Assembly (NCBI GenBank): GCA_013824115.1
Contig: PNNG01000019.1
Coordinates: forward strand, 1 to 64,000
DNA length: 64,000 bases
Origin: Sphingobacteriaceae bacterium
GTDB taxonomy: Bacteria; Bacteroidota; Bacteroidia; UBA7662
Direction of reading: 5' to 3'
A program made the position numbers and the translations under genes. Position 1 is the first letter of the stretch, and the number at the start of each line of letters is the position of its first letter. The notes under the pieces are model-generated. The model had not been told where the DNA came from, made no database searches, and saw only the letters and a list, made by a program, of their open reading frames with translations. Shown here one piece after another: positions 1,420-15,432 of this stretch.

Positions 1420-2925
1420 ATGTTCGAACAAACCTTCAAAAACATAGACGACATATTGCACAAAGACGCAGGTTGCGGCAGTGAATTGGATTATGTGGAG
1501 CAAACCTCTTGGATTTTGTTTCTGAAGTATTTAGACGACCTGGAGCGCGACCGGGCCACGGCCGCCGAACTCACCGGCAAAACCTACACCCCCATCATTG
1601 ATGCAAACTACCGCTGGGGGGTGTGGGCCATGCCTAAAAAAAGGAAGGCAGGTGGTTCGATGGGTGCGGCGAGTGAGCCTGTCGAACTCGTCGAACCCGG
1701 AGAACTGGATCATCAAAATGCCCTCACCGGCGACGACCTCACCGATTTTGTAAACAACCAGCTGTTCCCCTACCTCAAACGCTTCAAACAAAGCGCCGCC
1801 AGCGCCGATACCATTGAATACAAGATTGGCGAAATATTCAGCGAGCTGAAGAACCGCATCCAAAGTGGCTACAATTTGCGCGAGGTGATTAACCGCATCG
1901 ACGAATTGCGCTTCCGCACCCATGCCGAAAAGCACGAAATGAGCCATTTGTATGAAGACAAAATCAAAAACATGGGCAATGCCGGGCGCAACGGTGGCGA
2001 ATACTACACCCCCCGCCCGCTCATTACCACCATTGTAAAGGTGGTGAACCCCAAAATAGGCGATAAAATTTACGACGGGGCCGTGGGCTCAGCTGGCTTT
2101 TTGTGCGAGGCCTTCAATTATTTGAAGTCGGGCAAGGAACTGAGCACCAGCGAATGGGAAATACTGCAAAAGCGCACCTTTTACGGCAAGGAGAAAAAAT
2201 CGCTCGCCTACATTTTGGGCGTCATGAATTTGATTTTCCACGGCATTGAGGCACCCAACATCATCCACACCAATACCCTGGCCGAAAACCTGGCCGACAT
2301 ACAGGAAAAAGACCGCTACGAGGTGGTACTGGCCAATCCGCCCTTCGGTGGAAAAGAAAGGGCCGAGGTGCAGCAGAACTTCCCCATCAAAACAGGCGAA
2401 ACCGCCTCGCTTTTTTTACAGCACTTCATCAAAATTCTCAAAGCCGGTGGCAAGGCAGGCGTGGTAATCAAAAACACCTTTTTAAGCAATACCGACAATG
2501 CCAGCATTGCCCTCCGCAAAAGCCTGCTCGAGAGCTGCAACCTGCACACCGTTTTGGATTTGCCTGGCGGCACCTTTACCGGGGCCGGGGTAAAAACTGT
2601 GGTGCTGTTTTTCGAAAAAGGCCGTCCCACCCAAAAGATTTGGTACTACCAGCTCAACCTCAACCGCAATTTGGGCAAAACCAATCCCCTCAACGAAAAC
2701 GACCTGGCCGAATTTGTAGCGTTGCAAAAAAGCTTTGCCGACAGTCCCAATTCATGGAGCATCGATGTACGGTCACTCACCGGCCCCGAACTCGACCTGA
2801 GCGTGAAAAACCCCAACAAAAAAGAAGTGGCGCAACTCCGTTCGCCCGGCGATATTTTGGCAGAAATGAAGGCGCTGGATGAGGAGAGTGCGGAGATATT
2901 GGCATCCATTCAAGATTTGATTTAA
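1420..2925 (+). CDS. hsdM: Type I restriction-modification system DNA methyltransferase subunit HsdM
   Basis: 501 aa; HsdM N-terminal region; GGEYYTPRPL, DGAVGSAGFLCEA (SAM motif) and VLANPPFGG (NPPF catalytic motif). Confidence 0.95.
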   Translation: MFEQTFKNIDDILHKDAGCGSELDYVEQTSWILFLKYLDDLERDRATAAELTGKTYTPIIDANYRWGVWAMPKKRKAGGSMGAASEPVELVEPGELDHQNALTGDDLTDFVNNQLFPYLKRFKQSAASADTIEYKIGEIFSELKNRIQSGYNLREVINRIDELRFRTHAEKHEMSHLYEDKIKNMGNAGRNGGEYYTPRPLITTIVKVVNPKIGDKIYDGAVGSAGFLCEAFNYLKSGKELSTSEWEILQKRTFYGKEKKSLAYILGVMNLIFHGIEAPNIIHTNTLAENLADIQEKDRYEVVLANPPFGGKERAEVQQNFPIKTGETASLFLQHFIKILKAGGKAGVVIKNTFLSNTDNASIALRKSLLESCNLHTVLDLPGGTFTGAGVKTVVLFFEKGRPTQKIWYYQLNLNRNLGKTNPLNENDLAEFVALQKSFADSPNSWSIDVRSLTGPELDLSVKNPNKKEVAQLRSPGDILAEMKALDEESAEILASIQDLI

Positions 2926-2927
2926 GG

Positions 2928-3365
2928 ATGAAAGACGAAATCATCTTCTATCGACCAAATGAATTGGCCGAACACATTGAAGTGAGGCTAGAAGATGACA
3001 CTGTGTGGTTATCTCAACAGCAACTGGCTACCTTATTCAATCAAAGCAAGCAAAACATCAGCTTACACATCAATAACTGCTTCAAAGAAGGTGAATTAGA
3101 AAGGGAATCAACTGTCAAGGAATCCTTGACGGTTCAAAAAGAGGGGAACAGAACGGTTAAACGAAAAATCGAATTTTATAACCACGATGTAATCATCTCT
3201 GTTGGCTATCGGGTAAAATCGAAACAAGGCACGCAGTTTCGTATATGGGCATCGCGCATACTCAAAGACTATTTGCTGAAAGGCTACACCATCAACAACC
3301 GCATGAACCTCTTTCAAACCAAAACAGTAGCAGGCATTTTTAATCAAGTAAAGGAGTTGGTATGA
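2928..3365 (+). CDS. RhuM family protein, short/possibly C-terminally truncated
   Basis: 145 aa; IEVRLEDDTVWLSQQQLATLFNQSKQNISLHINN...NHDVIISVGYRVKSKQGTQFRIWASRILKDYLLKGYTIN is characteristic of RhuM N-terminal regions. Starts 2 bp after hsdM; stop overlaps the hsdS start (ATGA). Confidence 0.8.
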   Translation: MKDEIIFYRPNELAEHIEVRLEDDTVWLSQQQLATLFNQSKQNISLHINNCFKEGELERESTVKESLTVQKEGNRTVKRKIEFYNHDVIISVGYRVKSKQGTQFRIWASRILKDYLLKGYTINNRMNLFQTKTVAGIFNQVKELV

Positions 3366-4585
3366 GCACAGAAGCTAGCGTTTTGCCCGAGGGCTGGGAA
3401 ATGAAGAGGTTGGGGGAGGTTTGTGATTTTCAAGGTGGATCGCAACCACCAAAGAATCAGTTTATTTTTGAACCCAAAGATGGCTACGTAAGATTTTTAC
3501 AGATTAGAGATTTTTCTAGTGACAATCATGTCACTTACATTCCTGAATCAAAAAAAAACAGATACTGCCGTGAAGATGACATCTTACTTGGCAGATATGG
3601 TGCATCTGTAGGTAAGGTGTTAATCAACAAGGCCGGCGCCTACAATGTTGCTGTAATGAAAACAATACCGATGGAAGGTATTTTACATAAACGGTATTTG
3701 TACTTTTATTTGAATTCAGATGATTTCCAAAGAAGGTTATTAAACACGGCTTCCAGATCTGCACAAGATGGATTTAGTAAAGATGACATTTTTGATTTTC
3801 CGATTTTAATCCCCCCCCTCCCCGAACAACAACGCCTGGTGGCGCTTTTAGACCGTTGTTTTGCCGCCATCGACCGGGCCAAAGTCCTTGCCGAGCAAAA
3901 CCTCCAAAACGCCCGGGCGCTGTTTGAAAGTTATTTGCAAGGGGTTTTTGCTTCGACAGGCTCAGCAACCGGAGGTGATGATTGGGAAGAAAATCTACTA
4001 GAAGAATTAGTTGATGAAAGTTGCACGCTCTCCTATGGTATAGTTCAGCCAGGTGATGAATTTAAAAATGGGCTACCTGTTATTAGACCAACCGATTTAA
4101 GCAGCAAATTCATTAGAGTAAATGGTTTAAAAAAAATAGACCCGGCATTGGCAGAAGGCTATAAGAGAACTAAATTAATTGGCGATGAGCTATTGTTGTG
4201 TGTTCGAGGGTCAACAGGCGTTGTTTCGATTGCTACACCGGAATTAAAAGATGCCAATGTTACACGAGGCATTGTTCCCATTCGTTTCAATGCACAATTA
4301 ATCAATCAGGAATTTGGCTACTATCTACTTATTTCAAATTATGTTCAAAGTCAAATAAAAGCCAAAACGTATGGGGCTGCTTTGATGCAAATTAATATTG
4401 GTGATTTAAGAAAGCTCCTCATTCCTTATCCCTCGCTCCAAGAACAACAAACCATCGTCCGCCAATTAGATGCCCTGCGTGCCGAAACGCAAAAGCTGGA
4501 GGCGGTGTACCAAAAGAAAATAGCCGATTTGGAAGAGTTGAAAAAGAGTGTGTTGGAGAAGGCGTTTAGGGGGGAGTTGGTGTAA
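3362..4585 (+). CDS. hsdS: Type I restriction-modification specificity subunit HsdS
   Basis: 407 aa; two TRD halves each followed by an LPPLPEQQRLV / PSLQEQQTIV conserved region; ends LKKSVLEKAFRGELV. Confidence 0.93.
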   Translation: MSTEASVLPEGWEMKRLGEVCDFQGGSQPPKNQFIFEPKDGYVRFLQIRDFSSDNHVTYIPESKKNRYCREDDILLGRYGASVGKVLINKAGAYNVAVMKTIPMEGILHKRYLYFYLNSDDFQRRLLNTASRSAQDGFSKDDIFDFPILIPPLPEQQRLVALLDRCFAAIDRAKVLAEQNLQNARALFESYLQGVFASTGSATGGDDWEENLLEELVDESCTLSYGIVQPGDEFKNGLPVIRPTDLSSKFIRVNGLKKIDPALAEGYKRTKLIGDELLLCVRGSTGVVSIATPELKDANVTRGIVPIRFNAQLINQEFGYYLLISNYVQSQIKAKTYGAALMQINIGDLRKLLIPYPSLQEQQTIVRQLDALRAETQKLEAVYQKKIADLEELKKSVLEKAFRGELV

Positions 4586-4690: not shown

Positions 4691-5230
4691 ATGGCAAAGA
4701 AGCGTAAACTCAAAATAATGGTATCATCAACGGTATATGGAAGTCAAGATATACTCGATCAAATTGCTGCGGTTTTACGTCAGCAATTTGGCTATGATGT
4801 CATTATGTCAAAAGAAGGAAGTGTTTATGTGCCCGTTGCGTTTACTAGCAATCCAGAAGGAGCTTGTTTGCAAGCCGTAAACGATTGTGATTTATTTTTT
4901 GGAATTATCTTTCCTCGCTATGGATCAGGCATTACGCACAAAGAGTTTAAAGAAGCCGTAAAAATTGATAAGCCCAGATGGTTCGTAGCGCATGAAAAAA
5001 TCGAATACCTAAGAAAGTTGTTTGAGCCATATTTACTCAATGAAGAAAAAGCTAGGACTGATTTCGAAATCAAGAAGAACTCAGTTTTAGACAGTATCAA
5101 GGTGGTTGATATGTACAATGACGTTCGACATAATTGGGTGCAATCATTTACAAATCCAGGCGAATTATTGTTTTTCATTGAACAGCAGTTCAAAGACCAC
5201 GAAAGACGATTAAATGAATTAGAGCCATGA
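4691..5230 (+). CDS. DUF4062 domain-containing protein (stand-alone)
   Basis: 179 aa; KIMVSSTVYG...VNDCDLFFGIIFPRYGSGITHKEFKEAVKIDKPRWFVAH matches the DUF4062 pattern; stop overlaps the next gene's start by 4 bp. Confidence 0.75.
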   Translation: MAKKRKLKIMVSSTVYGSQDILDQIAAVLRQQFGYDVIMSKEGSVYVPVAFTSNPEGACLQAVNDCDLFFGIIFPRYGSGITHKEFKEAVKIDKPRWFVAHEKIEYLRKLFEPYLLNEEKARTDFEIKKNSVLDSIKVVDMYNDVRHNWVQSFTNPGELLFFIEQQFKDHERRLNELEP

Positions 5231-6717
5231 CTAACGAACAACTCATAAAGGACCTGATAAAACAGGGAGAAAGCGGTCAGCTTGAATTTAAAGAAGTGGT
5301 TCGAAAGGAAGACATTGCAAAAACCTTATGTGCTTTTTTAAATGCTGAAGGTGGTACGGTTTTAATTGGCGTTAATGACGATGGTGAGATCCTTGGTGTT
5401 GACCAAGCTGAACAATACGAATCGGCCTTAAAGCAATATCTTTTTCAATCTATAATTCCTGAAGCGCCTATAGCCGTTTCTACTGAACAAATAGGAATGA
5501 AGAAGCTATTGTCTGTAAAGGTGTGGAGCGGCTCGAAGCCACCTTACTTACTTAAGGACGGTAAGATTTTTTACAGACGTGGTAGTCGAACAGTAGCGGC
5601 ATCACCCGATGAAATTTCAAAACTCATAGTTGAACGGCAAAAAACAGAATTGCATTGGGAACGCCAACCTGCTTTGGGTGTTGATCTGGATGATTTAGAT
5701 GAACTGGAAATACGAAAGACCATTCAAGACCTGATCAAATTTGGGCGGGGGAAGCTATTTGATGAAAAGGATATAGAAGCGTTTCTTACCTACTACAGCC
5801 TCTACCGAGATGGGCATTTAACTAATGCTGCAGTTATTCTGTTTGCCAAAGAGCCTTCGAGATACTTACCCCAAAGCAGGGTTCGCTTGACGGTTTTTAA
5901 TGCTAACAAAACAGCTAACAGCTACGGCTATGATAAAGTATTTGAAGGGAATTTATTTAGGAATATCGAAGCTATACTCCAATTTTTTGAAGTCAATATT
6001 GCCACCAAAAGCCAGTTCAGCGAGAAAAAGTGGTTGCGCGATGACATTGCTTATCCAAAACTCGCCTTACGCGAAGGGCTTATGAATGCTCTGATTCATA
6101 GAGATTTTTCAAGCGTTTCAGGGACTGTTCATGTGGCATTTTATCCCACTCATTTAGAAATCATTAATTCAGGGGCTTTGTACGGGGGGTATTCGCCCGG
6201 TGATTTGTCCAAAAGCCACTTATCCGTGCCTCGAAATCCTGATATTGCACATATCTGCTTCTTGCGTCAAATGATTGAGAAGATTGGCAGAGGAACGGTA
6301 CTGATGATAGAAGATTGCAAAAGCAAAGGCTATGCAAGCCCTAAATGGGATACAAATGCTGGTTCCACCACGGTTACGTTTCGTGGCGTTACGGTGACAG
6401 CGAAGCATGATGCTGTAAATGATGCTGTAAATGATGCCGTAAATGATGCTGTAAATGATGCTGTAAAACAGGGCCTCATTGATGCTGTAGGTGATGCTGT
6501 AAATGATGCTCTAATTGATGCTGTAAATGCAATAGTAAAGCTTAATGATGGTGCATCCATAAAAGACATCATGGCTGCAACAGGAAAATCAAATGCAACT
6601 GTAAAAAGGTATCTGCAAATTCTCAGAGAAATAGAATTGATTGAGTTTAAAGGTGCAGCAAAAACAGGCAAATATCAGCTCACATCAAAGGCTGAAAAGA
6701 AAATTAAGCGTAGATGA
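5227..6717 (+). CDS. AlbA_2/Schlafen-type DNA-binding, ATP-binding (HATPase_c_4-like) protein with C-terminal winged helix
   Basis: 496 aa; ESGQLEFKEVVRKEDIAKTLCAFLNAEGGTVLIGVNDDGEILGV (AlbA_2), REGLMNALIHRDFS...IGRGT (HATPase_c_4-like), C-terminal SIKDIMAATGKSNATVKRYLQIL (HTH). Confidence 0.85.
   Translation: MTNEQLIKDLIKQGESGQLEFKEVVRKEDIAKTLCAFLNAEGGTVLIGVNDDGEILGVDQAEQYESALKQYLFQSIIPEAPIAVSTEQIGMKKLLSVKVWSGSKPPYLLKDGKIFYRRGSRTVAASPDEISKLIVERQKTELHWERQPALGVDLDDLDELEIRKTIQDLIKFGRGKLFDEKDIEAFLTYYSLYRDGHLTNAAVILFAKEPSRYLPQSRVRLTVFNANKTANSYGYDKVFEGNLFRNIEAILQFFEVNIATKSQFSEKKWLRDDIAYPKLALREGLMNALIHRDFSSVSGTVHVAFYPTHLEIINSGALYGGYSPGDLSKSHLSVPRNPDIAHICFLRQMIEKIGRGTVLMIEDCKSKGYASPKWDTNAGSTTVTFRGVTVTAKHDAVNDAVNDAVNDAVNDAVKQGLIDAVGDAVNDALIDAVNAIVKLNDGASIKDIMAATGKSNATVKRYLQILREIELIEFKGAAKTGKYQLTSKAEKKIKRR
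6409..6528 (+). repeat. 12-bp in-frame tandem repeat (GATGCTGTAAAT) encoding (NDAV)n
   Basis: Ten consecutive 12-bp slots, nine clearly related: GATGCTGTAAAT, GATGCTGTAAAT, GATGCCGTAAAT, GATGCTGTAAAT, GATGCTGTAAAA, (CAGGGCCTCATT), GATGCTGTAGGT, GATGCTGTAAAT, GATGCTCTAATT, GATGCTGTAAAT. Confidence 0.95.
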
Positions 6718-6773
6718 AGCAATAAACTAACCAAAGTTACATAAAGGAGTTTACCATTTTTGGCCATGCAATC

Positions 6774-6795
6774 TTATTTGATGGTTATTTGACAC
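6774..6795 (+). repeat. Composite direct repeat copy 1, TTATTTGATGGTTATTTGACAC
   Basis: Two TTATTTGA half-sites 11 bp apart. Confidence 0.85.
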
Positions 6796-6837
6796 ACAGC
6801 CCCGAAATGTGCATAATCAGCTGACAATCAACGTTTT

Positions 6838-6859
6838 TTATTTGATGGTTATTTGATAA
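6838..6859 (+). repeat. Composite direct repeat copy 2, TTATTTGATGGTTATTTGATAA
   Basis: Near-identical to copies at 6774, 8065 and 8131; begins 64 bp after copy 1. Confidence 0.9.
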
Positions 6860-7075
6860 TCAACAAAATGTATTTTGGCTAAAGGGTTCTTTAAGAGGAA
6901 AACTTGAAAGCTCGGTTTGATTCGAACGGCATGGTCTCTTTACCCACAGCATCAATACTTTCTATTGTTTTTAATTATATTTGTTATCTATCGCGGTAAA
7001 ATCCCCCAGCTTACAATATCTACAACAAACACCCTACGGCAACAAATCCGAATATATCCAAAATAAACCTGCAGG

Positions 7076-7104
7076 TTGATTTCTTGTAATAGTCAGTATC
7101 TTTG
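7076..7104 (+). promoter_or_regulatory. Putative Bacteroidota-type promoter for the toxin/XRE pair
   Basis: TTG (7076-7078), 18-bp gap, TATCTTTG (7097-7104), matching TTG-N~19-TAnnTTTG; ends 17 bp before the ORF start at 7122. Confidence 0.5.
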
Positions 7105-7121
7105 CAATTGTAAGTGAATGT

Positions 7122-7667
7122 TTGTATTCCGTTTTGTTTGAATCGGCAGATCAAAGAGAAAGCGGTTTAGGACAAACAACGCGTACGCATGAGTTTGATC
7201 GGCTTTTTGAATTTTGGACAGACCCTGTAAGACTAAGAGCATTTTTTGAAACACATGAAGCAGATTTGAATGAACCTTTTTGGGAAGGCATGACCATAGA
7301 AAAGGCCATTTTCAAAACCAGAGACGAGGCCAAAGTACTAAAGCAAAAACTGTTAGCCTTTGCCGAAGCCGATGCGCAAGGAACTAGCATGAACCTAACA
7401 CATTTGTTTTCGCCCTTGAGTGAAGGCAGGTTTGATAAAATACCAGCGAGAGAAAAAGCTAAAATCAAAGGCCATAAGACTTGGCTAAGGATGTATGCGA
7501 TAAGAATTGATAAAAATGTATTTGTGATTTGCGGAGGAGCCATCAAATTGCGGGCAACCATCAACGACAGGGCTTATTTGCAGGTGGAGCTTGACAAAAT
7601 GAACTGCACCAAAGACTATCTCCGCGAAACAGACAGTGATTTATTTGAATTGTACGAATTGAAATAG
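7122..7667 (+). CDS. Hypothetical protein, putative toxin partner of the downstream XRE protein
   Basis: 181 aa, starts with TTG; ends 7 bp before an XRE gene. Toxin call is by gene order only. Confidence 0.5.
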   Translation: MYSVLFESADQRESGLGQTTRTHEFDRLFEFWTDPVRLRAFFETHEADLNEPFWEGMTIEKAIFKTRDEAKVLKQKLLAFAEADAQGTSMNLTHLFSPLSEGRFDKIPAREKAKIKGHKTWLRMYAIRIDKNVFVICGGAIKLRATINDRAYLQVELDKMNCTKDYLRETDSDLFELYELK

Positions 7668-7674
7668 TTGCACC

Positions 7675-8043
7675 ATGAACAAGGAAGCAATCAAAAACAA
7701 ACTGGCTCGTGAAGCCATTAAGGATACCTCTTGGATTGAAAAGGCGAAATGGGAGCGTGACAATGAAGATTGGCTAGACCTATCTTTCAAAATTGCTGTG
7801 CGCATAGGTTCTGTGTTGAGCAGCAACAAAAAAGAACAGCGTTATCCCAAAAATCAGGTTGAATTGGCCGAAGCCCTGGGCTGCTCTGCTCAGTACGTAA
7901 ATAAACTGCTGAAAGGTCAGGAGAATTTGCAAATCGAAACCATTTGCAAAATTGCCAGCATACTACATGTGCGTTTGATTGAGGTACCGCCATTTGAATT
8001 GGAGCAAAACCTACAAAATAAACAGTCCTCCGTTCTTATGTGA
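7675..8043 (+). CDS. XRE-family helix-turn-helix protein, putative antitoxin
   Basis: 122 aa; NQVELAEALGCSAQYVNKLLKGQENLQIETICKIASIL is a canonical XRE HTH. Confidence 0.8.
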   Translation: MNKEAIKNKLAREAIKDTSWIEKAKWERDNEDWLDLSFKIAVRIGSVLSSNKKEQRYPKNQVELAEALGCSAQYVNKLLKGQENLQIETICKIASILHVRLIEVPPFELEQNLQNKQSSVLM

Positions 8044-8056
8044 TGGTCATGTGATT
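8036..8056 (+). repeat. Degenerate composite repeat, TTATGTGATGGTCATGTGATT
   Basis: Same two-half-site layout (TTATgTGAT-GG-TcATgTGAT) overlapping the XRE stop codon. Confidence 0.6.
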
Positions 8057-8064
8057 GGGTAGTC

Positions 8065-8086
8065 TTATTTGATGGCTATTTGATAG
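8065..8086 (+). repeat. Composite direct repeat copy 3, TTATTTGATGGCTATTTGATAG
   Basis: Near-identical to copies 1, 2 and 4. Confidence 0.9.
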
Positions 8087-8130
8087 GAGCTAATGAAAAC
8101 GCCTTCAACACATTGATTACCAAAGAATTC

Positions 8131-8152
8131 TTATTTGACGGTTATTTGATAA
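8131..8152 (+). repeat. Composite direct repeat copy 4, TTATTTGACGGTTATTTGATAA
   Basis: Begins 66 bp after copy 3 and ends 10 bp before the hsdR-like ATG at 8163. Confidence 0.9.
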
Positions 8153-8162
8153 ACGAGAAAGG

Positions 8163-8255
8163 ATGAACGAAGCAGCAACCCGCGCCGAACTGATCGACCC
8201 CAAGCTCAAAGTTTGCGATTGGGCCGGCAGCAAAGGCTTCGATCTCAAGGGTTAA
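8163..8255 (+). pseudogene. Truncated duplicate of the hsdR 5' end
   Basis: MNEAATRAELIDPKLKVCDWAGSKGFDLKG* versus true HsdR start MNEAETRAELIDPKLKACGWGVVEGSK at 9892; ~60 bp aligned with a few mismatches. Confidence 0.9.
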
Positions 8256-8270
8256 AAAGACATAGATTTG

Positions 8271-8306
8271 GTTGACATTTTAATCATTTTCATTAATTTT
8301 GTCAAC
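8271..8306 (+). promoter_or_regulatory. Putative promoter with overlapping inverted-repeat operator upstream of XRE-ImmA
   Basis: TTG (8272-8274), 19-bp gap, TAATTTTG (8294-8301). Inverted repeat GTTGACA (8271-8277) / TGTCAAC (8300-8306) overlaps both elements; ends 11 bp before the ATG at 8318. Confidence 0.6.
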
Positions 8307-8317
8307 AACCTTTTACC

Positions 8318-9385
8318 ATGAGCACTCCCCTACGCATCGGAAACCGCCTGCAAATGGCCCGCAAAATGAAGGCCCTGAGTCTTCAACAGTTGGCCCAGGA
8401 GGTAGGCATAAGCAAACAAATGCTGAGCAAGTACGAGCAAGGTTTGCAATTGCCGGGCACTGCGCGTTTGTTGCAGTTGAGCAAACTGCTCGGTCAACCC
8501 ATCGATTTTTTTACCAGTCAGGCCGAGCAATCGGTACCTGCTTTCAGTTTTCGCAAGCGCAGCAAGCTCAAAGGAAAGGCCTTGGCAGCCTTGGAATTGC
8601 AGGTACGCCTGCGCATGGCCGATTACCTTTTTGTGGAAGACGTTTGTGCAGCAGTTATTCCCTTCGAAAATCCACTAAGCGAATTAGTCCTAACCCAGGT
8701 AGATGACGTGTATGCCGCTGCCTTGACCTTGCGCGAGCGCTGGCAAATAGGCTACGATGCCTTGGCTTCGGTGGTGAATTTGTTGGAAGACAAAGGCATC
8801 AAGATCATCGAAGTGAGCGACCCAAGCGGCTTGTTTGATGGCCTGGCTTGCTGGATAGATGGCAAACATCCTATGTTGGTGATTGCACGCGAAATGCCCG
8901 TAGAGCGCAAACGTTTCACTTTGGTGCATGAGTTGGGTCATTTGCTCTTGAACTTGAGTGCATTTGACGAAAAAAACCAAGAAGCATGGTGCAATGCCTT
9001 TGCCAGCGAGTTTTTAGTGCCCTCCGAGGTATTGCAACGAGAGGTAGGCGGTAAGCGTGAGCACATCAGCTCCGAAGAGCTCATGCAATTGCAAGAAAAG
9101 TACGGCATGAGTCCCAAAGCCTTGCTTTACAAATTGGGTGATTTGGGATTGCTGGCGGCATACAAAGTCAGAGACTTTTACATTCGTTTAAACCAGAACC
9201 AGCCACTCAAACAAATGCTCGAAGCCGAGCGGTTTGCAGGAACCGAAAGGCCCATGCGTTTTGAACAATTGGTTTACCGGGCCTTGGTATTGGAAGAAGG
9301 CGGCATTTCGATGAGTAAAGGAGCCTATTTATTGGGCAAAAAGCTCGAAGAAGTACGCGAAACCATGACTTTACACCTCATATGA
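8318..9385 (+). CDS. XRE-family regulator fused to ImmA/IrrE-type metallopeptidase domain
   Basis: 355 aa; N-terminal HTH LSLQQLAQEVGISKQMLSKYEQG; FTLVHELGHLLL (HExxH) and NAFASEFLVP. Confidence 0.92.
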   Translation: MSTPLRIGNRLQMARKMKALSLQQLAQEVGISKQMLSKYEQGLQLPGTARLLQLSKLLGQPIDFFTSQAEQSVPAFSFRKRSKLKGKALAALELQVRLRMADYLFVEDVCAAVIPFENPLSELVLTQVDDVYAAALTLRERWQIGYDALASVVNLLEDKGIKIIEVSDPSGLFDGLACWIDGKHPMLVIAREMPVERKRFTLVHELGHLLLNLSAFDEKNQEAWCNAFASEFLVPSEVLQREVGGKREHISSEELMQLQEKYGMSPKALLYKLGDLGLLAAYKVRDFYIRLNQNQPLKQMLEAERFAGTERPMRFEQLVYRALVLEEGGISMSKGAYLLGKKLEEVRETMTLHLI

Positions 9386-9876
9386 TGCGGCTCCTGGTTA
9401 CCGATGCCAATATTTTTATAGACTTGGTACACCTGGGCGTGATCGAGGCCTTTTTCCGTTTGCCCTTTGAAATCCATACCAGCGATATTGTTTGGGATGA
9501 AATAAGCGCCCATCATCCGGCATTCGAGGGCATGTCGGTGCATGTGCATTCGGTAGAACCGGATGAAATGAAGACATTTTTGCGCTTAAACGAGCACTAT
9601 CCCGGATTAGGTATGGCCGATTGTTCGGTGATATATTTCTCCGAGCTACTCCAGGGCATCTGTTTAACGGGCGACGGCACTTTGCGCAAAATCGTTCAGA
9701 CCCGCGGCCAAGAAGTACACGGCATTTTATTCGTGGTTAAACAATTTGCCGAATGCCGCATATACACTTTCACCGAATGTGGTGATATATTGCAACAGTT
9801 AAAGCGAATCAACCCACGCTTGCCCAAAACAGAAATCGACAAACTGCTGGCTTCCCTGGAGGCTGGAGGGTTTTAG
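9382..9876 (+). CDS. PIN-like domain protein, putative toxin
   Basis: 164 aa; LLVTDANIFIDL, GMADCSVIYFS and LTGDGTLRK give PIN-like acidic residues; ATGA overlap with the ImmA gene. Confidence 0.75.
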   Translation: MMRLLVTDANIFIDLVHLGVIEAFFRLPFEIHTSDIVWDEISAHHPAFEGMSVHVHSVEPDEMKTFLRLNEHYPGLGMADCSVIYFSELLQGICLTGDGTLRKIVQTRGQEVHGILFVVKQFAECRIYTFTECGDILQQLKRINPRLPKTEIDKLLASLEAGGF

Positions 9877-9891
9877 CCCAACGAATACAAA

Positions 9892-12255
9892 ATGAACGAA
9901 GCAGAAACCCGCGCCGAACTGATCGACCCCAAGCTCAAAGCTTGCGGCTGGGGCGTTGTGGAAGGCTCTAAAGTGTTGCGTGAATACCACATTACCCAAG
10001 GAAAAATCCAAACCGGCGGTGGTCGTGGCAAAAAAGAGATTGCCGACTATGTACTGGTGTACAAAGGCATCAAATTGGCCGTTGTAGAGGCCAAAAGCGC
10101 CGATCAGGAAGTGGGCGAAGGCGTGATGCAAGCCAAAAAATACGCCCAAAAGCTGCAATTAGACACCACTTACAGCACCAACGGCAAGGCCATTTACCAA
10201 ATCTGCATGCAGTCGGGCCAAGAAGGTGAGGTAAGCGATTTTCTGAGTCCCGATGCCCTTTGGGCCAAAACCTTTCCTGCCACTGGAATGGAGCAGCGCA
10301 TCGAAACGTGGCGCGAACAATTTGCGCAAGTGCCCTTTGAAGACAAAAGCGGCAGTTGGCAGTTGCGCTATTACCAGGAAATTGCCGTTCAACGCACCGT
10401 GGAAGCCATCGCCCAGGGCAAAGACCGCATTTTACTCACCCTGGCCACCGGAACGGGCAAAACAGCCATTGCCTTTCAAATTGCGTGGAAGTTGTTTCAA
10501 ACCCGTTGGAATTCATCGGCACGCGCGCAAAGCGCAACCCCAGTAAGCCGCCGACCCCGCATTTTATTCTTAGCCGACAGGAACATTTTGGCCAACCAGG
10601 CTTTCAACTCCTTTTCGGCCTTTCCCGACGATGCTTTGGTGCGCATCAAACCCGGCGACATCAAAAAAAATGGCCGCGTGCCCACCAACGGCAGCATTTT
10701 CTTCACCATTTTCCAAACCTTCATGAGCGGCACCGATGCCGAGGGCAAGCCTGCCCCCTACTTTGGTGAATACCCCAAAGACTATTTCGATTTCATCGTC
10801 ATTGACGAATGTCACAGGGGTGGCGCCAACGACGAAGGCAATTGGCGGGGCATATTGGAATATTTCAGTGAAGCCGTTCAACTGGGCCTAACCGCCACAC
10901 CCAAGCGCAAAGACAACGTAGATACCTACCGCTATTTTGGCGAACCGGTTTTCATTTATTCGCTCAAAGAAGGCATCAACGATGGTTTTTTAACACCCTT
11001 CAAAGTAAAGCGCATCAAAACCACTTTGGATGATTACCGCTACACTTCCGATGATACCATTGTGGAAGGCGAAATTGAAGAAGGCAAGCTCTACGAAGAA
11101 AAAGACTTCAACCGCACCATCGAAATTGTAGAACGCGAGGCCAAGCGGGTGAACGTGTTTTTAGCGGAAGCCAACCAAAACGAAAAGGCCATTATTTTCT
11201 GCGCCAACCAAGCGCATGCTGCCTTGATACGTGATTTGGCAAACCAAAACGCCAAAGCCAAAGACCCCTTTTATTGTGTGCGGGTAACTGCCAACGATGG
11301 CGAAGAAGGCGAAAGGTTGTTGCGCGAATTTCAAGACAACGAGAAATCCATTCCCACCATCCTCACCACTTCGCAGAAACTCTCCACGGGCGTAGATGCG
11401 CGGAACATACGGAACATTGTATTGCTACGGCCGGTCAATTCGATGATTGAATTCAAGCAAATTGTGGGTCGGGGCACCCGCCTTTTTGATGGCAAGGAGT
11501 TTTTCACCATTTACGACTTTGTTGACGCTTACAAACATTTTAGCGATCCGGAGTGGGATGGAGAACCCTTGGGAGAAGAACCGAAAGAACCGAAACCCTA
11601 TCCGGATCCTGAGCCAACCGAGCCATCGGTGGTTGCAGAGTCGGATGAGGTCGGTCCCAAAAAGCAAAAGGTAAAAATCAAGTTGCGCAACGGCAAAGAG
11701 CGCGAAATTCAGCACATGGTTTCCACTTCGTTTTGGAGTGCCGATGGCAAACCCATTTCTTCGGAGGAATTTTTAAGCAATCTGTTTGGCGAATTGCCCA
11801 AGCTTTTCAAAGACGAAGAAGAATTGAGGCAATTGTGGGGCAATCCACTCACGCGCAAAACCTTGCTCGAAAATTTGGATGCCGCCGGTTTCCCCAAAGG
11901 CGATTTGTTGACCTTGCAGCAGTTGGTCGACATGGAAAAAAGCGACCTCTACGACGTATTGGAATACGTTTTCAACGGCGACTACATTGCCATGACCCGC
12001 GAAGCCCGGGCGAAGGCGGCAGAAGCTACCATTTTCGCCCTCCTCAACGACAAGCAAAAAGAGTTCATCACTTTCGTATTGAGCAAATATATTGAAACGG
12101 GCGTCGACGAACTCGACCAGGAGAAGCTGCCCATACTGCTCACCAACAAATACCACTCACTCGAAGACGCCAAAGAAATTTTGGGCGACGTGGGCAACAT
12201 CAGCAGGTTATTTATAGAGTTTCAGGCGCATTTGTACAAAGAGCGGGTGGCGTGA
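9892..12255 (+). CDS. hsdR: Type I restriction endonuclease subunit HsdR
   Basis: 787 aa; VVEAKSA nuclease-like region, LTLATGTGKTAIAFQ (Walker A), FIVIDECHRG (DECH), QIVGRGTRLF (motif VI). Confidence 0.95.
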   Translation: MNEAETRAELIDPKLKACGWGVVEGSKVLREYHITQGKIQTGGGRGKKEIADYVLVYKGIKLAVVEAKSADQEVGEGVMQAKKYAQKLQLDTTYSTNGKAIYQICMQSGQEGEVSDFLSPDALWAKTFPATGMEQRIETWREQFAQVPFEDKSGSWQLRYYQEIAVQRTVEAIAQGKDRILLTLATGTGKTAIAFQIAWKLFQTRWNSSARAQSATPVSRRPRILFLADRNILANQAFNSFSAFPDDALVRIKPGDIKKNGRVPTNGSIFFTIFQTFMSGTDAEGKPAPYFGEYPKDYFDFIVIDECHRGGANDEGNWRGILEYFSEAVQLGLTATPKRKDNVDTYRYFGEPVFIYSLKEGINDGFLTPFKVKRIKTTLDDYRYTSDDTIVEGEIEEGKLYEEKDFNRTIEIVEREAKRVNVFLAEANQNEKAIIFCANQAHAALIRDLANQNAKAKDPFYCVRVTANDGEEGERLLREFQDNEKSIPTILTTSQKLSTGVDARNIRNIVLLRPVNSMIEFKQIVGRGTRLFDGKEFFTIYDFVDAYKHFSDPEWDGEPLGEEPKEPKPYPDPEPTEPSVVAESDEVGPKKQKVKIKLRNGKEREIQHMVSTSFWSADGKPISSEEFLSNLFGELPKLFKDEEELRQLWGNPLTRKTLLENLDAAGFPKGDLLTLQQLVDMEKSDLYDVLEYVFNGDYIAMTREARAKAAEATIFALLNDKQKEFITFVLSKYIETGVDELDQEKLPILLTNKYHSLEDAKEILGDVGNISRLFIEFQAHLYKERVA

Positions 12256-14991: not shown

Positions 14992-15432
14992 CATCAGCGG
15001 TCCAGCATGGAACGCTGAACACGCTGATTGAGCGGATGAGCACGGATTTCATAACCGTCCAGCCCCACTAAGGGCGGCATGTGCGTAGCAAAAAAAATCC
15101 GCCCCATCCGCGTCATCAGCGGTCTATCACGGAACGCGGAGCACGCGGATTAAACGGATGATCACGGATTTAATACCCATCCAGCCCTGCTAGGGGCGGC
15201 ATGTGCGTAACCGCAAAAATCCGCCCCATCCGCGTCATCAGCGGTCCATCACGGAGCACGGAGCACGCGGATTAAACGGATAATCACAGATTTCATAACC
15301 ATCCAGCCCTGCTAGGGGCGGCATGTGCGTAACCGCAAAAATCCGCCCCATCCGCGTCATCAGCGGTCCATTACGGAACGCGGAGCAGGCCGATTGAACG
15401 GATAATCACGGATAAAGCACCACCCAGCCCCG
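14992..15432 (+). repeat. 122-bp tandem repeat, ~3.6 copies
   Basis: CATCAGCGGTC starts at 14992, 15114, 15236 and 15358 (exact 122-bp period). Confidence 0.95.

What the first reader, a model, noticed from the sequence alone, without database searches (positions are those of the whole stretch)
4691..6717. Candidate uncharacterised two-gene system: stand-alone DUF4062 coupled to AlbA_2/HATPase-like protein
A 179-aa protein that is only a DUF4062 domain overlaps by 4 bp a Schlafen-AlbA_2 protein with ATP-binding and winged-helix regions. DUF4062 is usually seen as an N-terminal domain of larger proteins. Coupling and location suggest a sensor/effector pair. Defense function is inference from context only.
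Basis: partly seen in the sequence, partly recalled or inferred. Interest (0 to 1): 0.6.

Follow-up and report, generated by a model that had tools for sequence, protein, structure and literature searches.

The report
Two-gene TIR-like NADase defence module
Two overlapping genes inside a bacterial DNA-restriction operon form a conserved pair, a lone enzyme of a newly recognised NAD-destroying family plus an ATP-binding Schlafen-type partner, that most likely works as a built-in suicide switch against phages.

Summary
4691-5230 is a stand-alone DUF4062 protein. It overlaps by 4 bp a protein with SLFN_AlbA_2, a GHKL-type ATPase (HATPase_c_4) and a winged helix (5227-6717), inside a type I restriction-modification operon. 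The pairing is conserved. All 13 DUF4062 relatives found in genome contigs (41-89% identity) are followed directly by the partner. So are all testable close partner homologues in 396 Bacteroidota genomes, two of them only as remnants. Pairs also sit on Hymenobacter and Acinetobacter plasmids. Many single-gene fusions place DUF4062 directly on the same ATPase-winged-helix chassis, replacing AlbA_2. DUF4062 was reported in May 2026 as a TIR-like NADase ('Swarozyc', PMC13174449). Its catalytic Glu (KpSwz E97) corresponds to E85 here, invariant in 28/28 pairs. GHKL motifs are also invariant, whereas the Schlafen RNase carboxylates are not. Two pairs carry a NACHT sensor on the partner. Best reading: DUF4062 is the NADase effector and the partner its sensor/regulator, giving abortive infection, often embedded in type I RM like PrrC. 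NADase activity, trigger and defence are untested here. I judge it a new, split variant of a known kind.

The parts
4691..5230 (+). Stand-alone DUF4062 (TIR/NDT-like) protein, predicted NADase effector; catalytic Glu E85 in the motif G-S-G-I-T82-H-K-E85-F
   Evidence: Pfam DUF4062 4e-12. AF2 model pLDDT 84; Foldseek best PDB matches are NDT, TIR and DNPH1. E85 invariant in 28/28 pairs and aligned to KpSwz E97 via L016.
5227..6717 (+). Partner: SLFN_AlbA_2 (res. 15-125), middle domain (about 150-280), GHKL-type HATPase_c_4 (about 280-385), repeat helix, C-terminal winged helix; predicted sensor/regulator
   Evidence: Pfam. Foldseek 3lmm E 3e-19, then histidine kinases and MarR-type wHTH. GHKL residues E283, N287, N314, G316, G354, G356 invariant in 28/28.
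5227..5230 (+). ATGA stop/start overlap coupling the two genes
   Evidence: Sequence; -4 overlap in 21 of 28 pairs.
6407..6529 (+). 12-bp tandem repeat coding (N-D-A-V)n, predicted helical linker between the ATPase and the winged helix; variable in relatives
   Evidence: TRF; alignments.
1420..2925 (+). hsdM, type I methyltransferase (host operon)
   Evidence: PADLOC MTase_I 4e-155, Pfam N6_Mtase/HsdM_N.
3362..4585 (+). hsdS, type I specificity subunit (host operon)
   Evidence: Pfam Methylase_S 2e-33.
9892..12255 (+). hsdR, type I restriction subunit (host operon)
   Evidence: PADLOC REase_I 5e-129; 77% identical to hsdR of L002.

Best explanation
The two genes are one conserved module: a split, two-component relative of the Swarozyc NADase defence. 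DUF4062 is the effector, a TIR-like NADase (E85 catalytic) that is held inactive in uninfected cells. The AlbA_2-GHKL ATPase-winged-helix protein is its dedicated sensor/regulator. It binds the effector and ATP, detects an infection cue through AlbA_2 and/or the C-terminal domain, and clusters or releases DUF4062. NAD+ is then depleted and the infected cell stops or dies before phage are made. In this genome and a little under half of the relatives it is carried inside a type I restriction operon, where it would act as a second layer. SHOWN here by sequence: conserved coupling, fusion to the same chassis, fold and catalytic residue, invariant ATPase motifs, swapped sensor ends. KNOWN for relatives: NADase activity and abortive infection of DUF4062 in KpSwz. 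INFERRED: that this pair binds, is ATP-gated, senses phage and depletes NAD+.
For: (1) Adjacency in 13/13 relatives. Of 24 full-length partner homologues above about 264 bits in 396 Bacteroidota genomes, 20 had a Pfam-detected DUF4062 directly upstream and the other 4 were a contig-cut gene, two C-terminal remnants and one untestable contig edge. No full-length homologue just below that score was adjacent. (2) At least 25 single ORFs are DUF4062 fused to the partner's residues 150-490 without AlbA_2; hhalign probability 99.9%, E 1e-36. (3) TIR/NDT fold. E85 equals KpSwz E97: L016 matches KpSwz 10wc at 6e-49, with the E97A substitution at that position; T82 and E85 are invariant in A3 and align in A1 vs A4. 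PMC13174449 reports that DUF4062 hydrolyses NAD+ and needs E97 for defence. (4) GHKL residues invariant 28/28, whereas Schlafen E15 or E20 is lost in 10/28 pairs and the third acid is usually absent. (5) Partner variants end in NACHT (L114 also FGE-sulfatase), a STAND sensor type. (6) 12 of about 28 pairs lie within type I RM. (7) Distance matrices of the two proteins correlate, Mantel r 0.81, 0/5000.
Against: No activity, binding or phage data exist for this pair. The window lacks KpSwz's portal-sensing AUX domain, and AUX shows no detectable similarity to the partner, so the trigger must differ. The partner model is mediocre (pLDDT 68) and the complex was not modelled. E15 and E20 are present in the window's own protein, so some RNase activity of the partner is not excluded. 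Mantel correlation is also expected under simple joint inheritance.
Confidence: 0.6

Rival explanations
1. RM-embedded guard (PrrC-like): the pair specifically watches the type I RM complex and fires the NADase when a phage anti-restriction protein disables Hsd.
For: In 12 of about 28 pairs the module is contiguous with hsdS/hsdM, often overlapping hsdS. In L101 it sits beside an AAA_13 (PrrC/RloC-like) gene in an hsd locus. PrrC, linked to a type Ic RM enzyme, is silenced by it and switched on by T4 Stp (PMC2610378).
Against: More than half of the pairs lie outside RM operons (L005, L006, L012, L013, L096, L102-L108, L111, L113, L117), so Hsd cannot be the only trigger unless it acts in trans.
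Confidence: 0.25
2. Thoeris-like signalling: DUF4062 makes an ADP-ribose-type messenger and the Schlafen AlbA_2 protein is the messenger-activated RNase effector.
For: Two genes, a TIR-like enzyme plus a possible effector. Schlafen-kinase-wHTH proteins are proposed backup suicidal RNases in BREX loci (PMC12839542). The window's protein keeps E15 and E20.
Against: Fusions drop AlbA_2 altogether but keep DUF4062 plus the ATPase-wHTH chassis. RNase carboxylates are not maintained: E15 or E20 lost in 10/28, third acid mostly N/S/T. Reported DUF4062 products are plain ADP-ribose and nicotinamide (PMC13174449). The partner has no SLOG, Macro or SIR2 domain.
Confidence: 0.15
3. Toxin-antitoxin style addiction unit: DUF4062 toxin neutralised by the partner, serving to stabilise the RM island or plasmid rather than to sense phage.
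For: Overlapping toxin-like and partner genes, some on plasmids. Orphan partners with DUF4062 remnants exist (L120, L121), while no orphan DUF4062 of this subfamily was seen.
Against: The partner is large, with invariant ATP-site residues and interchangeable sensor-type ends including NACHT, more than an antitoxin needs.
Confidence: 0.2
4. The partner is a transcriptional regulator (as the old COG2865 label suggests) of the RM operon and DUF4062 is an accessory nucleotide-metabolising enzyme.
For: C-terminal winged helix; AlbA_2 is annotated as nucleic-acid binding (PMC6299218).
Against: The module is conserved outside RM operons with different neighbours, and the fusion with DUF4062 and the NACHT variants do not look like simple regulators.
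Confidence: 0.1

Closest known systems
Swarozyc (KpSwz, DUF4062 TIR-like NADase; PMC13174449, PDB 10wc/11cq/11cv)
   Same: DUF4062 domain with the same T-x-x-E catalytic position; located in defence islands
   Different: Here DUF4062 is a separate 179-aa protein without the stalk and AUX portal-sensing domain; the sensor role falls to a second gene unrelated to AUX
Bacterial Schlafen RNase - minimal histidine kinase - wHTH proteins (BREX backup effectors, PMC12839542; bacterial Schlafens, doi 10.1101/2025.07.24.666596 cited there, not read)
   Same: Same domain order AlbA_2 - GHKL ATPase - wHTH as the partner; associated with defence loci
   Different: Coupled to a DUF4062 NADase; RNase carboxylates not maintained across the subfamily
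Single-gene DUF4062-HATPase_c_4-wHTH proteins in Bacteroidota (e.g. L025, L035, L044)
   Same: Same effector domain and same chassis, E 1e-36
   Different: Fused in one polypeptide and lacking AlbA_2; no experimental description found
PrrC/RloC with type I RM
   Same: Suicide-type gene carried inside hsd operons
   Different: Effector and ATPase are unrelated (anticodon nuclease with ABC ATPase); the pair also occurs without RM
SAMD9 (AlbA_2 - Sir2-like - STAND; PMC5445408) and SIR2-Schlafen-APAZ proteins of short pAgo operons (PMC6299218)
   Same: AlbA_2 combined with an NADase-type fold and, as in L114/L115, a STAND NTPase
   Different: Different NADase fold (Sir2), different chassis, one polypeptide

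Membership tests
Swarozyc | DUF4062 (TIR-like) domain | tested here: met
   Pfam 4e-12; TIR/NDT fold; A1 vs Swz-like A4 E 7e-6
Swarozyc | Catalytic Glu (E97 of KpSwz) | tested here: met
   E85, invariant 28/28; aligned via L016 to the E97A position of 10wc
Swarozyc | C-terminal stalk and AUX (HTH/winged) portal-recognition domain in the same protein | tested here: not met
   Protein ends at 179 aa; no AUX similarity in the partner (hhalign probability 0.3%)
Swarozyc | NADase activity and portal-triggered abortive infection | not testable with these tools
   Needs biochemistry and phage assays
Schlafen (AlbA_2) - histidine-kinase-like - wHTH proteins | AlbA_2 + GHKL ATPase + wHTH domain order | tested here: met
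   GHKL motifs invariant
Schlafen (AlbA_2) - histidine-kinase-like - wHTH proteins | Three-carboxylate RNase triad (SLFN13 E205/E210/D248, PMC5862951) | tested here: not met
   E15 and E20 present in the window but the third position is N50 (neighbouring D51 acidic); across 28 pairs E15 or E20 is lost in 10
Thoeris | TIR gene plus ThsA-type effector (SIR2-SLOG or TM-Macro) | tested here: not met
   Partner has none of these domains
PrrC-type RM-embedded suicide system | Gene located inside a type I hsd operon | tested here: met
   Window and 11 other pairs
PrrC-type RM-embedded suicide system | Silenced by Hsd, activated by an anti-restriction factor | not testable with these tools
   Needs genetics; many pairs lack neighbouring RM
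PrrC-type RM-embedded suicide system | ABC-ATPase anticodon nuclease | tested here: not met
   No AAA_13/PrrC domain in either protein

The most novel reading that the evidence does not exclude
A modular defence chassis (middle domain, GHKL ATP-clamp, exchangeable wHTH or NACHT sensor) carries alternative effector heads: DUF4062 NADase fused directly, or AlbA_2 with DUF4062 supplied in trans. When embedded in type I RM it acts as an NAD-depleting guard that fires when phage disable restriction.
Probability: 0.25. Interest if true: 0.8.

Novelty: new variant of a known kind. Interest (0 to 1): 0.6.

Why it matters
DUF4062 has just been shown to be an NADase family reaching from phage defence to the human vault. 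This work points to a large two-gene branch in Bacteroidota, also found on an Acinetobacter plasmid, in which the NADase is separate from its sensor. It also identifies fused homologues that should reveal how the two contact each other. It gives a testable link between ATP-gated GHKL proteins, Schlafen domains and NAD depletion. It would help explain why such genes sit inside type I restriction operons.

Tried and rejected
Portal-sensor equivalence: KpSwz-like AUX versus the partner's wHTH gave no profile similarity, so a portal trigger is not claimed. Active Schlafen RNase as the obligatory effector: rejected as the main reading because the carboxylates are not maintained. A contrast with DUF4062-less relatives was only modest: most with the region keep E15/E20, but most also lack the third acid. 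Phage origin: no match in 50,697 phage records for DUF4062 and none for either protein in viral contigs. Direct sequence match of the window DUF4062 to solved structures: none by phmmer and only weak TEP1 alignment by profile, so the link was made through L016. Promoter and terminator scans were at background level. Other effector heads on the chassis: the homologues checked carried AlbA_2-type or DUF4062 heads only (from profile coverage).

Full report
OBSERVATION. The first is a bare DUF4062 domain with a C-terminal extension (Pfam 4e-12). The second has SLFN_AlbA_2 (5e-22), HATPase_c_4 (2e-13) and a weak winged helix. They lie in a type I RM operon: hsdM 1420-2925, a RhuM fragment 2928-3365, hsdS 3362-4585, the pair, then a HigBA-like gene pair, an XRE/ImmA gene and a 164-aa ORF downstream, and hsdR 9892-12255. 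The nearest relative, L002 (a Cytophagaceae MAG), has hsdM-hsdS-DUF4062-AlbA2-hsdR without the inserted genes.

CONSERVATION OF THE PAIR. A scan of 84,980 species genomes for close relatives of the DUF4062 protein gave 13 loci with 41-89% identity. In every one the next gene is the AlbA_2 partner. In 396 Bacteroidota genomes I searched DUF4062 and the partner separately and intersected the coordinates. Of 24 full-length partner homologues scoring above about 264 bits, 20 have a Pfam-detected DUF4062 directly upstream. One more is cut by the contig end and shows the DUF4062 C-terminus (L069). Two retain only its last 17-32 residues (L120, L121). One starts at a contig edge. Full-length homologues just below that score have none. 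In 28 aligned pairs the overlap is exactly 4 bp in 21, and the two proteins' distance matrices correlate at r=0.81 (0/5000 permutations). Pairs also occur on a Hymenobacter plasmid and, with a second DUF4062-like gene, on Acinetobacter baumannii plasmid pC9_4. No phage or viral-contig match was found.

FUSIONS. At least 25 DUF4062 hits are single ORFs of roughly 490-730 aa, mostly 500-560, in which DUF4062 is followed directly by the partner's residues from about 150 onward, i.e. the middle domain, GHKL ATPase and winged helix, with AlbA_2 absent. The profile comparison aligns 165-503 with 148-504 at 99.9%, E 1e-36. Pfam labels one of them DUF4062 + HATPase_c_4 + Fic-like_C. This is Rosetta-stone evidence that the DUF4062 domain works with that chassis.

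WHAT THE PARTS ARE. The DUF4062 model (pLDDT 84) resembles nucleoside deoxyribosyltransferases, TIR domains and DNPH1. The May 2026 preprint PMC13174449 shows that DUF4062 is a TIR-like NADase family, that K. pneumoniae Swarozyc (KpSwz) depletes NAD+ on infection, and that E97 is needed. A Bacteroidota DUF4062 protein, L016, matches KpSwz entry 10wc at 6e-49; the solved chain carries Ala where L016 has the Glu of T-Q-L-E, as expected for the published E97A construct. That Glu aligns with E85 of the window protein, which is invariant in 28/28 pairs. The partner's best structural match is 3lmm (E 3e-19), followed by histidine kinases and MarR-type winged helices. GHKL residues E283, N287, N314, G316, G354 and G356 are invariant in 28/28. 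The Schlafen RNase carboxylates are less respected: E15 or E20 is lost in 10/28 and the third position is mostly N/S/T. So the constant chemistry of the module is the DUF4062 Glu and the ATP site, not Schlafen RNase catalysis.

SENSOR VARIATION. Most partners end in divergent winged helices, some preceded by tetrapeptide-repeat helices. In L114 the partner continues into NACHT and FGE-sulfatase domains, and in L115 into NACHT. That pattern, constant core with changing C-terminus, fits a sensor. The AUX domain of Swarozyc-like proteins is not detectably related to the partner, so the trigger is probably different.

CONTEXT. Twelve of about 28 pairs are contiguous with hsdM/hsdS genes (window, L002, L003, L004, L007, L008, L011, L097, L100, L101, L110, L112). 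L101 also holds an AAA_13 gene of the PrrC/RloC kind in the same operon. L014 is beside a type II-like methylase and L108 beside a TOTE primase-helicase. The rest lie elsewhere. The module is therefore portable but favours RM operons.

MECHANISM. Most likely DUF4062 is an NADase executioner controlled by the ATP-binding partner, producing abortive infection (0.6). A PrrC-like guard role for Hsd is a plausible special case of this (0.25, overlapping with the best explanation). A Thoeris-like messenger route, a plain addiction unit and a regulator role are less likely.

NOVELTY. Each component kind is already described: DUF4062 NADase in PMC13174449, and Schlafen-kinase-wHTH backup effectors in PMC12839542. 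The words Schlafen, AlbA and restriction do not occur in the main text of the DUF4062 preprint; its supplementary operon figure could not be read. I found no paper describing this pair. I therefore file it as a new variant of a known kind, not as a member of Swarozyc, because the same-chain AUX feature was tested and not met.

Noticed in passing
window 2928-3365: RhuM-type gene is a short fragment (145 aa, matching only the first 65 of 252 Pfam positions) between hsdM and hsdS; absent from the otherwise matching operon of L002. RhuM-like genes also lie near the pair in L106 and L107.
   Followed up: partly
window 6718-9891: About 3 kb insertion between the pair and hsdR relative to L002: a HigBA-like pair (7122-8043), an XRE-ImmA/IrrE gene (8318-9385) and a 164-aa ORF without Pfam match (9382-9876).
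   Followed up: partly
window 6407-6529: 12-bp tandem repeat encoding (NDAV)n in the partner's linker; relatives have NDGV, IDRA, IEGA or SEVT repeats of differing number, suggesting a fast-changing helical linker.
   Followed up: partly
window 14992-15413: 122-bp tandem repeat, 3.5 copies, 89% matches, downstream of the island.
   Followed up: no
L114:1325-5050, L115:1-2795: Partner proteins continuing into NACHT (L114 also FGE-sulfatase): AlbA_2-GHKL-STAND proteins next to DUF4062; L115's DUF4062 gene encodes two fused DUF4062 domains.
   Followed up: partly
L119:1984-4351: Acinetobacter baumannii plasmid pC9_4 carries a three-gene version (two DUF4062-like genes plus AlbA_2-GHKL protein, annotated 'Fic family').
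   Followed up: partly
L116:2992-4335: A 447-aa DUF4062 protein sits between virion-morphogenesis and baseplate genes of a P2-like prophage on a Salmonella plasmid, a plausible cargo-gene spot.
   Followed up: no
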